Of a stretch of 64,000 bases of DNA, positions 19,421 to 27,004 are shown piece by piece. Source of the DNA: Bacillus sp. es.036 (lineage in GTDB: Bacteria; Bacillota; Bacilli; Bacillales; Guptibacillaceae); NCBI RefSeq assembly GCF_002563635.1, contig NZ_PDIZ01000001.1, positions 868,001-932,000 on the forward strand, written 5' to 3'. The translations under genes and the position numbers were made by a program. Within the stretch, counting starts at the first letter, position 1, and the number at the start of each line of letters is the position of its first letter. Below the pieces are notes generated by a model that saw nothing but the letters and a program-made list of their open reading frames with translations, did not search any database and was not told where the DNA came from.

Positions 19421-19741
19421 GTGCTACGATTAACCACTGGTCCGATTAAAAATTCATTGCAAAATGGTTTAGGACTTCTAAGCGGGTGATGATTATGATC
19501 GTTAATAGTAGTGATGTTAATACCAGCACGGTAGAAATAGTGGGAACGAACCTAATACTGCTAATCAGAATTGATCAGTGTGGTTTCAAAGGATTATTAT
19601 GCTGAACTAGATGGATTCCAGTTGTCAATTCATATTTCAGGTCTCGCACTTTCTCAAACAAGAATATCTGTTTGGGGAAACTCGGATGGAGTGATCCAAT
19701 GAGCCCATAGACTTGTTCTATCTGAATTGACAATTAATTAA
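19421..19741 (+). pseudogene. Decayed copy of the free head-domain gene
   Basis: Starts GTG after GAAGGGAGAGAAG and reads LRLTTGPIKN, then hits TGA at codon 23. Matching pieces of the intact gene at 21571 continue in other frames: NTSTVEIVGTN, then a short deletion, SVVSKDYYAELDGFQLS, ISVWGN, a TGA, and AHRLVLSEL before the final TAA. At least two frame changes, one internal deletion and two in-frame stops show it is dead. It retains the upstream CATATA-type element, so it arose by tandem duplication with the gene at 21571. Confidence 0.8.
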
Positions 19742-19799
19742 ATAGCCTTTTACTCTTTTTTATTTTTAAATTAATGATCGTAAAAAAAGGAGGAGTAAA
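19742..19799 (+). promoter_or_regulatory. Leader of the first collagen-like gene
   Basis: AT-rich leader ending in AAAAAAGGAGGAGTAAA, a very strong ribosome binding site before ATG 19800. No clear promoter pair was recognised. Confidence 0.4.
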
Positions 19800-21355
19800 A
19801 TGCCATTATTGTATACTGGCCCAATCGATAATGCTCCTGTAAATGGCAGTAGAACTACCCAACAGTTTTCGGTAAAAATAACAAATCGTAGTACAACAAT
19901 GTATGGAACTGTTTCCATAGAGGGATATATTTTAAGCAGTACGAGAACTATATATGTTCAAGAATTATTTAGTATTGCTCCGAACCAAGTAATTACTAAG
20001 ACATTTGTGGCGAATTTTAATGCCTTTGAGTTTATATTCATTACAGGTGGAGCGGCTGAGAATGTCATTGATGTATCTGCTGGGGGAAAAATGTTGAAGG
20101 TCAATTGGTTTCAGCCCATCGATTAGTGTCATCCGAATTATTAGGAGCTCAAATAGAAGGAGTAACAGGGGCAACTGGAGCAACGGGAGCGACCGGGGAG
20201 ACCGGTGCAACTGGAGCAACGGGAGCGACCGGGGAGACCGGTGCAACTGGAGCAACGGGAGCCACCGGGGAGATCGGTGCAACTGGAGCAACGGGAGCCA
20301 CCGGGGAGACTGGAGCAACGGGAGCAACTGGAGCCACCGGGGAGATCGGTGCAACGGGAGCAACTGGAGCCACCGGGGAGATCGGTGCAACGGGAGTAAC
20401 TGGAGCGACCGGGGAGACCGGTGCAACTGGAGCCACTGGGGAGACCGGAGCAACCGGCCCAGGAGTATTTCAGTGGGGTGAAGAGACCGTTATTTGGGCG
20501 GACTCCAGTGCAACTGGCCCAGGAGACGGTACACCTTCAGACCCATTTAATTCGTTGCAAGCTGCTGTTAATGCTGCAACAAGCAGTGTTTTCGCCACAA
20601 CATTTGGCATGAGAGCTCGATTAGTTATTTTAATTGCAGCTAATTCAGTATTTAATGAAGATATCGTAATACCTCCTGCCAGACATGTGCAATTGCTTGG
20701 TCTTGGCCCGTGGGTACTTGGAAGTGGCGATTTAGCATTTTTTAATTCTTCTGTTTCTAGGAATATTACGATTCAAACCGATTCTAACCTAGAAAATTCT
20801 TATAACTCTCAAGGTCCAGCTTTCCAGGCGCGACCTGTTACAGTTATCGGAACGTTAGATAATGGTACCTCAGTGAGTACCCATACTAACTATACAGATG
20901 GTGCAATTATTAGCGGTGACGTAATATTTGAGAATGTTTATCTTCCAGATCCATTCAATACGATTGAATTTCAAATATTAAATGCAAGAGTTCAAGGAAG
21001 TATCATAGGGGATTTAGTAAATCCTGCACTGGGGCAACTAAATACCTATATTTATCACAGTAGAATCAATATTGTTGATAAACCGGGTATGAGAATTAAT
21101 CGTATGGTCGACACGAGGGTAGACGGAACAATGAATTTTACGGGATATTCCAATATAGTAGATTCCTGGATTCGTGGCGATGTAACCGTTACATCTGCGA
21201 TTTCGGATGTACCGCCAGTCGGAATCTACGATACACAGTTCGATACGATCACCTGGAATGGGCCGCTTGTATTGGACACTTCTTCAAATTATTATTTTGT
21301 AACCTCGGGTTCTAGCTTAATAGGAATTAAAACAATCCTATATAGCTTAGCGTAA
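19800..21355 (+). pseudogene. Collagen-like protein with beta-helix tail, frameshifted
   Basis: Two frames of one gene. The first (19800-20126) encodes a head domain beginning MPLLYTGPIDNAPVNG that is clearly homologous to the intact head at 21992, up to VSAGGK; it then leaves frame at the G5A5 run 20082-20091 and stops at 20126. One extra A would join it to the frame open from 20105 to 21355: [12 protein letters not shown], 33 Gly-X-Thr triplets (20159-20455), then a 300-residue C-terminal domain starting [16 protein letters not shown], with [18 protein letters not shown] and repeated short beta strands typical of right-handed beta-helix proteins. As written it is broken; slippage, decay or an assembly error could each explain it. 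Confidence 0.75.
20159..20455 (+). repeat. Gly-X-Thr collagen-like tandem repeat (33 triplets)
   Basis: 9-bp codon triplets GGx-GCx/GAx/ATx-ACx; X is mostly Ala, with Glu or Ile at every fourth triplet or so, so a longer unit [11 protein letters not shown](T/I) of about 36 bp is visible. Confidence 0.9.
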
Positions 21356-21570
21356 ATTTAAATATGAAAACAACACTATAATTTACGATTTTTAAAAAAG
21401 TGGAAATCTCAATGTGATGTGTGTAAGTTTTTAAAAATCCTTTCTTATTTGAAAGGGATCAACATATAGTGTTTGAGATTTAACTTAGTAATGAAACACT
21501 TCATAAAGGGAATGTGGATCGATTGAGGTTATTAAAGAGGTTGAATTGTATGGGATAAGGAGGTGAAAGG
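21356..21570. promoter_or_regulatory. Intergenic region with shared CATATAGTG-TTTGAG element
   Basis: No gene seen. Carries CATATAGTG at 21463-21471, the element also found at 19332 before the decayed copy, and the strong site AAGGAGGTGAAAGG before the TTG start at 21571. Possible sporulation-sigma promoter. Confidence 0.4.
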
Positions 21571-24900: not shown

Positions 24901-25774
24901 GTTTGATGATGAAAATGGTGTTTTCTTCGGAGTGGATAATACTTCATCGTTTGTAGCGATTAGGAGAGCCGGTGTAGATACGGTTATTCCGCAAGCTTCT
25001 TGGAATGTTGATCCACTCGACGGAACAGGTCCAAGTGGAGCGACCTTGGATTTATCTAAAGGTAATATATTCCAAATAGATTTCACATGGTATGGCTATG
25101 GTGTCATTGAGTTTCGAGTTGTGATTCCAAACCCAACTACTCTTGCACAAGAAGTTATAACCGTTAATCGTTATGCTCCAAGTGGAGAAACGAGTCTTGC
25201 TGATCCTAACTTACCTTTACGAGCCGAGATTAATAATGATGGAACTGCAAGTGCGCTGCAGGTATTTGTTGGAGGCAGGCAGTATTCAATTATAGGGAAC
25301 TACAACCCGACATTTAGAATCACATCTGAACGACGAACGATCACAGCAACAACAACATTAACACCAGTTATTTCTTTTCAACGTAAGACTGAATTTCCTA
25401 CAGGGTCAGGTAGACCTAACTCAGTAAGCGTAACTCTAGAGGGGATTGATCTAGTTACAAGTGCTGATATTTATTATCAAGTTTTACTCGGTGGAACTCT
25501 GAATGGGTCCTTTGTCACCTTTCCAACTGCAACGACGAATATTCCAAACTCCGAAACGGCATTACTTGTAAATACTACATCCACTACTTTAACGGGCGGG
25601 CAGGTAATTTTACAGGGTCTTGCAGCTTCTAGCTTTTTTAACAATCGAGTACTGGCATCTGCATCCTTGTTGGATTTCGAACTCCCTGACACCGAATTTG
25701 TGACACTAGCCGTTGCAACATTTTCCGGAAGTGGTTCCGTAGTTGGTACGTTCAGAGTAACTGAAGAATGGTGA
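21992..25774 (+). CDS. Giant collagen-like surface protein (head, 246 Gly-X-Thr triplets, tail)
   Basis: 1260 residues in three parts. Residues 1-118: head domain shared with the proteins at 19800 and 21571. Residues 121-858: 246 consecutive Gly-X-Thr triplets without interruption, X being Ala or Glu after an initial mix with Ser, Phe and Val. Residues 860-1260: a beta-rich tail ([59 protein letters not shown]) duplicated as the free protein at 25802. Organisation is like BclA-type exosporium filaments, whose collagen Thr residues carry O-glycans with rhamnose; the adjacent rhamnose cluster fits this. There is no BclA exosporium leader and no homology of head or tail to BclA that I can see. 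Confidence 0.85.
22352..24565 (+). repeat. 2.2-kb collagen-like tandem repeat array
   Basis: 246 perfect 9-bp codon triplets (Gly-X-Thr). Higher-order copies exist: 23261-23790 is identical to 23873-24402 (530 bp, offset 612 bp), and blocks around 22740-22860 recur 252 bp downstream. GC-rich compared with flanking DNA. Confidence 0.95.
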
Positions 25775-25801
25775 GAACTTGCAGAGAAGGGAGGGTTGAT
25801 T

Positions 25802-27004
25802 TTGGCAGATATAAATATTACTAATATTGGCCCAAATGTTAGTTCACAATTTAATGAGCTTCGAACTGCTGAAAGAACACCAATTGTAGAGTTGACATCC
25901 ACTTATGGTGTTTCTGCTTTACGAGATATTGTAACTACGACTGGTGGGGGAACCGTTACAAATGATGCTACTGAATATAGCGTCAGTACTTCTACAGGCG
26001 GCACTGACGCGGCTACACTGGATAGTGCATTAAGAGGAAGGTATGAACCGGGGTATGCTGGTGAGGCGGGGATAGGAATCCGTCTCCCCAGTCTTCCAAC
26101 AGGTACACAAGTTACGAGGTGGGGGTTGTTTGATGATCAGAACGGGGGTTACTTTGGTCGGAATGCAACAGATACCTTTGTAGCTGTTAGAAGAGGTGGA
26201 GTCGACACGGTTATTAATCAATCATCCTGGAATGTTGATCCATTAGATGGAAGCGGTCCTAGTGGAGCAACCCTTACGTTAAGTGAAGGGAATATCTTTC
26301 AAATTCTTTTTACTTGGTATGGATATGGAGTTATCGAATTTAGAGTCGTATTGCCAAATCCTACCACCCTTGCACAGGAAGTAATTACGGTTCACAGATA
26401 TGCGCCAACTGGAGAAACCAGTTTTATTGATCCCAATCTTCCACTTAGGGCACAAGTCGATAACGATGGCACTGCCTCAGCACTTTCCGTTTTTGTAGGT
26501 GGGAGACAATATGGGATTGTAGGGAGATATAATCCCACATACAGGGTTACTTCTGAGAGAAGAACCGTTAGCGGGATTGGAGCAACGTTGACACCACTCA
26601 TTTCTTTTAGGAGAAAATCAGTGTTCCCTGCAGGTTCAGGAAGAGCCAATTCTGTTCAAATTAGTCTGGAAGGAATTCAGGTTATTTCTTCTTTAGATGT
26701 TGCTTACCAGGTCTTGATCGGCGGCACAATTAACGGTGCATTTGGCAATTTCCCTACTGCTAATACGAATATACCAAATACCGAGACGGCTTTAGAGGTG
26801 AATAATACGGCGACAACGTATACACCGGGGGAAGTAGTTTTTCAAGGAGCAACTTCAGGCGGTGGTTTTAGCAGAGTAGTCGGCATTGATGAATTAATTG
26901 ACTTCACTCTCCCAACGGATGAAATTGTTACGCTGGCAGCAGTGAATTTGGTGGGAGGTACAGCAACAGTAACGGCTACGTTTTTACTCACTGAAAGTTG
27001 GTGA
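25802..27004 (+). CDS. Free tail-domain protein, paralogue of the giant protein's C-terminus
   Basis: 400 residues alignable along its whole length to residues 860-1260 of the giant collagen-like protein: [65 protein letters not shown] and [15 protein letters not shown] 25802 is preferred over TTG 25796 because AAGGGAGGG then has 6-base spacing. It follows 21992 by 27 bp, so it is in the same operon. No signal peptide. The patch Trp-Asn-x-Asp-Pro-Leu-Asp-Gly with Trp-Tyr-Gly-Tyr-Gly is, from memory, seen in some phage and large-DNA-virus structural proteins; not verified. Might form mixed trimers or caps with the fibre tail. Confidence 0.75.
   Translation: MADINITNIGPNVSSQFNELRTAERTPIVELTSTYGVSALRDIVTTTGGGTVTNDATEYSVSTSTGGTDAATLDSALRGRYEPGYAGEAGIGIRLPSLPTGTQVTRWGLFDDQNGGYFGRNATDTFVAVRRGGVDTVINQSSWNVDPLDGSGPSGATLTLSEGNIFQILFTWYGYGVIEFRVVLPNPTTLAQEVITVHRYAPTGETSFIDPNLPLRAQVDNDGTASALSVFVGGRQYGIVGRYNPTYRVTSERRTVSGIGATLTPLISFRRKSVFPAGSGRANSVQISLEGIQVISSLDVAYQVLIGGTINGAFGNFPTANTNIPNTETALEVNNTATTYTPGEVVFQGATSGGGFSRVVGIDELIDFTLPTDEIVTLAAVNLVGGTATVTATFLLTESW

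What the first reader, a model, noticed from the sequence alone, without database searches (positions are those of the whole stretch)
19421..27004. A modular fibre kit: free head, head-collagen-tail, and free tail encoded side by side
The head domain of the collagen-like proteins also exists alone (21571, plus a dead copy at 19421), and the C-terminal domain of the 1260-residue protein also exists alone (25802), directly behind it. Free copies of both ends next to the full fibre suggest mixed assemblies, capping or length/valency control, a design not described for BclA-type exosporium filaments as far as I know. Seen: the homology and order. Inferred: co-assembly and spore location.
Basis: partly seen in the sequence, partly recalled or inferred. 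Interest (0 to 1): 0.75.

Follow-up and report, generated by a model that had tools for sequence, protein, structure and literature searches.

The report
Mix-and-match spore fibre gene cluster
A Bacillus-like bacterium encodes a long collagen-like fibre beside separate copies of both of its ends; the tip resembles a virus-shell protein, and in most of the relatives examined it comes as the same two-gene pair, which hints at a shared but untested way of equipping spores with sticky tips.

Summary
Observation confirmed and extended. The window carries a free head (21571-21921), a head-collagen-tail gene (21992-25774) and a free tail (25802-27004), plus an upstream dead head and a second, frameshifted head-collagen gene. 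The trio is conserved in 4 of 14 genomes of the genus (own included), under purifying selection.

The two halves of the kit behave differently. (1) The tail pair is general: collagen-tail followed directly by free tail in 23 of 28 loci mapped, in Bacilli and Clostridia, while heads are swapped. In 17 loci free tails form one clade: an old, maintained duplication. (2) Free heads go with the TGPI head (7 of 7 loci, four of them congeners).

The tail is a phage virion family (phrog_1645), about 40% identical over 97% of its length to a Sulfitobacter phage protein, with a predicted concanavalin-A/GH16-like fold. Collagen-less tails lie beside endospore-appendage (Enas) genes in four loci scanned. 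One alternative head matches that of a pBM500 protein, apparently B. megaterium BclA1, whose head goes to the forespore.

Best reading: head = spore anchor, collagen = spacer, tail = glycan-binding tip related to a virion protein, free tail = second tip subunit. Spore location is indirect; co-assembly, capping and glycan binding are untested.

The parts
19430..19729 (+). remnant of a free head (dead; 8 in-frame stops)
   Evidence: 38% to the fused head, E 5.6e-6, 4 TGA 2 TAG 2 TAA; 54% to G004's intact free head
19800..21355 (+). second head-collagen gene with a different C-terminal domain; split by a frameshift into ORFs 19800-20126 and 20105-21355; about 34 Gly-X-Y triplets
   Evidence: homologue with one open frame in G009 (L017 8190-10013)
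21571..21921 (+). free head, 116 aa
   Evidence: 51% to fused head; counterparts in G004, G005, G009; dN/dS 0.13-0.24; AF2 model pLDDT 89.2, 8 strands
21992..25774 (+). head-collagen-tail protein, 1260 aa
21992..22351 (+). fused TGPI head domain
22358..24558 (+). collagen-like repeat region, about 247 triplets (179 GAT, 61 GET), about 200 nm if fully extended at the 0.28 nm/residue used in PMC11952670
24584..25771 (+). fused tail domain, phage virion family phrog_1645
   Evidence: E 1.5e-60; 39.7% to the phiGT1 protein
25790..25795 (+). Shine-Dalgarno-like GGAGGG before the free tail
25802..27004 (+). free tail, 400 aa from the TTG at 25802
   Evidence: E 1.3e-52 to phrog_1645; AF2 model pLDDT 84.9; dN/dS 0.05-0.10
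27205..29814 (+). family-2 glycosyltransferase; candidate for glycosylating the collagen threonines (inferred)
   Evidence: Pfam E 3.5e-32; SunS-like 72.9 bits, far below its cut-off of 350; a like sequence motif in 11 of 28 tail loci
16539..17789 (+). BMQ_0737-family morphogenetic spore coat protein (neighbour)
   Evidence: NCBIfam NF052457, 143.1 bits against cut-off 71

Best explanation
This is a spore-surface filament system built from interchangeable modules. The N-terminal head anchors the fibre to the spore or to a free-head assembly; the collagen is a spacer of up to about 200 nm; the tail is a lectin-like tip related to a tailed-virus virion protein; the free tail is a specialised second tip subunit that is kept with the fused tail and probably works at the same tip, most simply as its own oligomer docking on or beside the fused tail, since a free chain inside a collagen trimer would leave the triple helix short of a chain. 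The free head is most simply extra anchor subunits made for the TGPI type of head. Shown: modules, order, conservation, an old tail duplication (in 17 loci), head swapping, virion homology. Predicted: the ConA-like fold. Inferred: spore location, oligomeric state, glycan binding, co-assembly.
Confidence: 0.55

Rival explanations
1. The free tail and free head act on their own: separate spore-surface proteins (free tail on another platform, as the collagen-less ENA-linked tails seem to be) that merely share an operon with the fibre.
For: Collagen-less tails with mostly Cys-containing N-termini exist in Sutcliffiella (two), G128, G098 and, broken, Gracilibacillus, with Enas genes beside them in the four loci scanned. 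The free tail has its own start and ribosome site.
Against: By eye, free tails of the pairs start within a few residues of the domain and have no Cys motif of their own (no signal-peptide program was run); same order and adjacency in 23 of 28 loci.
Confidence: 0.25
2. One reading: free head and free tail join the fused chain in mixed trimers or cap its ends and so set length or valency.
For: Homologous ends encoded side by side; free/fused identity 66% for tails and about 50% for heads, compatible with homo- or hetero-oligomers.
Against: In 17 loci the two tails have been separate lineages since before the loci diverged, with fixed differences; a free chain in a collagen trimer would remove one strand (reasoning). 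Not testable with monomer prediction.
Confidence: 0.12
3. Prophage relic or phage structural operon that has picked up collagen repeats.
For: The tail is a virion family, and collagen repeats match many phage fibre families.
Against: No capsid, portal or terminase gene was noticed by eye among the ORFs listed around the window locus and L016-L019 (most were not scanned); scanned neighbours with a family are a spore-coat protein and glycosyltransferases; spore-former tails lie on one side of a branch apart from the viral ones (100/99, with the tool's warning about long viral branches).
Confidence: 0.03

Closest known systems
F-ENA / F-Anchor / F-BclA endospore appendage (PMC11952670)
   Same: A free small subunit encoded beside a collagen-like protein that carries a copy of the subunit; a collagen tip fibril of about 200 nm; found in Bacilli and Clostridia.
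   Different: Head is not DUF4183 (no Pfam match); the copy sits at the N-terminus, not the C-terminus; a free copy of the tip domain is not mentioned in the sections read.
BclA / B. megaterium BclA1 nap proteins (PMC4674009)
   Same: N-terminal anchor, long GXT collagen, C-terminal globular domain; the NTTRR-F1 head, apparently BclA1's, is one of the heads found on this tail.
   Different: Tail is about 396 aa and predicted ConA-like, not the roughly 135-aa BclA C-terminal domain; no exosporium-leader match.
phrog_1645 virion structural proteins (Sulfitobacter phage phiGT1, Halogranum tailed virus 1, cyanophages)
   Same: End-to-end homology with the tail; same overall predicted fold.
   Different: One matching place per record and no pair in the three viral regions read; no collagen repeat in the frames of the 14 viral-contig tails mapped.
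S-/L-ENA and the Cys-motif tip protein L-BclA (described in PMC11952670, section 11)
   Same: A Cys-rich N-terminus plus a tip domain next to Enas genes resembles the collagen-less tails.
   Different: No Enas match in the window genome, though that search rang in no control.

Membership tests
phrog_1645 virion structural protein | profile match over most of the protein | tested here: met
   E 1.5e-60 fused, 1.3e-52 free
BclA family | collagen-like repeat | tested here: met
   247 triplets in the fused gene; Pfam Collagen on the sister gene
BclA family | exosporium leader at the N-terminus | tested here: not met
   no such NCBIfam match at E up to 1 for the head proteins; that the library holds TIGR03720 is assumed, not checked
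BclA family | BclA_C/C1q-like C-terminal domain | tested here: not met
   no Pfam BclA_C match at E up to 1 for either tail
F-ENA | DUF4183 profile on the free subunit | tested here: not met
   no Pfam match for the free head, one unrelated weak match for the fused head; a distant structural likeness is not excluded
F-ENA | C3 polymer with N-terminal hook | not testable with these tools
   needs multimer prediction or cryo-EM
Enas (PF13157) | Enas profile on head or tail | tested here: not met
GH16 enzymes | catalytic E-x-D-x-(x)-E | tested here: not met
   the pattern, recalled and searched anywhere in the domain, occurs in 4 of 58 tails
Spore surface protein | presence on spores | not testable with these tools
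   indirect evidence only

The most novel reading that the evidence does not exclude
A virion structural protein with a lectin-like fold was taken over by spore-forming Firmicutes, duplicated, and kept as a two-subunit tip that travels between Bacilli and Clostridia as a unit and is plugged onto whatever anchor the local spore surface uses (NTTRR-F1, TGPI, Cys-rich or ENA-like). The direction virus to bacterium is inferred from the much wider spread of the viral relatives.
Probability: 0.4. Interest if true: 0.78.

Novelty: new variant of a known kind. Interest (0 to 1): 0.6.

Why it matters
It would make spore fibres a plug-and-play system in which tip and anchor evolve separately, suggest a function for a large uncharacterised virion family, and add a bacterium-virus exchange of a putative adhesive domain. 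It makes a clear experiment possible: does the free tail sit on the fibre tip?

Full report
WHAT IS THERE. The locus on the + strand holds: a dead head (19430-19729), a head-collagen gene with another C-terminal domain split by a frameshift (19800-21355), a free head (21571-21921), a 1260-aa head-collagen-tail gene (21992-25774), and 27 nt later a free tail (25802-27004) with GGAGGG before its TTG. Searches of this 4.34-Mb genome found heads and tails nowhere else. Downstream lies a family-2 glycosyltransferase; upstream a BMQ_0737-family spore coat protein over its curated cut-off.

CONSERVATION NEARBY. Of 14 genomes of the same genus (own included) in the relatives sample, 4 have the tails, and in all 4 the order is free head, head-collagen-tail, free tail. 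A fifth member of the genus (G013) has a head and no tail match. dN/dS for free head, fused head, fused tail and free tail over the six genome pairs is 0.05-0.24 wherever dN is above zero; one pair of fused heads has no amino-acid change; several dS values exceed 1. The upstream free head is broken or cut short in the window, G005 and G009 and has an intact counterpart in G004.

CONSERVATION FAR AWAY. One scan of the genome-contig collection gave 24 loci, in Bacillus, Metabacillus, Sporosarcina, Jeotgalibacillus, Sutcliffiella, Halobacillus, Gracilibacillus, Paenibacillus, Clostridium, Alkaliphilus and Desulfosporosinus (the scan starts from two short conserved patterns, so this is a lower bound). 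With the window and L016-L019, and L033 dropped as a duplicate, 28 loci were mapped: in 23 the collagen-tail gene is followed at once by a free tail. The five others are two single tails (L052, L054) and three broken or end-cut ones (L053, L055, L056). Two further single tails (G128, G098) came from the order-wide sample. In that sample 17 of 397 genomes have a tail match and 12 of the 17 have two adjacent full-length tails; some are the same strains as above. Heads match in 9 of 397.

TREE. In a tree of 58 tails, the 17 free tails of one group form a clade (100/99) and the 17 fused ones lie outside it; within each set the same species tend to group together, including Bacilli with Clostridia, so the pair seems to move as a unit. 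Mantel r between fused and free distances over 23 loci is 0.90, 0 of 9999 permutations as high; linkage alone would give this too. The other 6 pairs are not resolved into two sets, and L045's two copies are closest to each other. Six columns separate the two sets of the 17 loci completely, two of them by gaps; the penultimate residue is one of the six.

HEADS. Of the 23 pairs, 17 fused genes can be read to their N-terminus; the other 6 run off contigs or are split in the collagen. Heads: 7 TGPI, 5 NTTRR-F1-like, 4 a Clostridium domain (no Pfam match in the one scanned) that resembles the C-terminal domain of a neighbouring collagen protein in three loci, 1 Cys-rich. The NTTRR-F1 name comes from the annotation of records matching L019's head; the other four were grouped with it by eye. 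All 7 TGPI loci also hold at least one collagen-free TGPI head, but its place varies: before the fibre gene in the genus, behind the free tail in L043, kilobases away in L034 and L044; four of the seven are congeners. L045, whose fibre head is not readable, has one too. For the other head types, the same-locus copies found are themselves in frames with collagen repeats; L035's copy has only 9 triplets in its open frame.

SPORE LINK. Single tails have short, mostly Cys-containing N-termini. Of nine neighbouring ORFs given to Pfam (besides one Clostridium head), seven match Enas, in L052 (three), L105 (two), L106 and L056; L056's other ORF did not match and L035's matched DUF4489. L054 was not scanned; one of its neighbouring ORFs closely resembles that of L052 by eye. 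A split tail on Priestia megaterium plasmid p1 lies beside DUF4183 and spore-germination genes. The NTTRR-F1 head of L019 is 46.5% identical over 91% to that of a 954-aa protein of pBM500, the size and plasmid given for BclA1, whose first 159 residues fused to GFP went to the developing forespore, though the signal was lost on maturation (PMC4674009, passages and section 13). The identification with BclA1 rests on size, plasmid and head length; the record shows another locus-tag style.

HOW IT LIKELY WORKS. See Best explanation: anchor, spacer, lectin-like tip, and a second, specialised tip subunit. The anchor role is argued from exchange: the slot that the TGPI head fills is filled elsewhere by a domain of an apparently spore-targeting kind. 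The tip role is argued from the virion homology, predicted fold and C-terminal place. Partnership of the two tails is argued from an old duplication with fixed differences and frequent adjacency. None of these is an assay.

LITERATURE. Eight searches of the held PMC library listed no title or abstract start that describes this tail pair; most subscription papers are not held. Seen: PMC11952670 (abstract, sections 6, 9, 10, first parts of 7 and 11), PMC4674009 (12 of 18 passages, section 13), PMC12494034 (12 of 25 passages). Others were seen as search listings only.

VERDICT. New variant of known spore collagen-like filaments.

Noticed in passing
window 13978-15323 (- strand): Three small Cys-containing proteins (99, 105, 113 aa) with CC...DC patterns, present also in G004 and G009 and resembling ENA or CotZ-type proteins by eye; no Pfam match.
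   Followed up: partly
window 27205-29814: Glycosyltransferase with a SunS-like part directly behind the free tail; a like N-terminal motif is found in 11 of 28 tail loci.
   Followed up: partly
window 17870-18805: Coiled-coil-like protein with a sub-threshold Pfam Phage_scaffold match (29.3 bits, cut-off 35), present in the four genomes.
   Followed up: no
window 20080-20095: Frameshift next to a G5A5 run in the second head-collagen gene; could be a real mutation, a phase-variable tract or a sequencing error.
   Followed up: partly
L016 5849-8962 against L017 8190-10013: The second head-collagen gene keeps its head but carries quite different C-terminal ends in different congeners.
   Followed up: partly
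L120 7773-9682: Priestia megaterium plasmid p1: a split tail gene beside DUF4183 (F-ENA-type) and spore-germination genes.
   Followed up: partly
L035 3835-4980, L036 3986-5263, L037 5660-6742: Clostridium collagen proteins whose C-terminal domain resembles (37-46% identity) the N-terminal domain of the neighbouring collagen-tail protein, suggesting end-to-end coupling.
   Followed up: no
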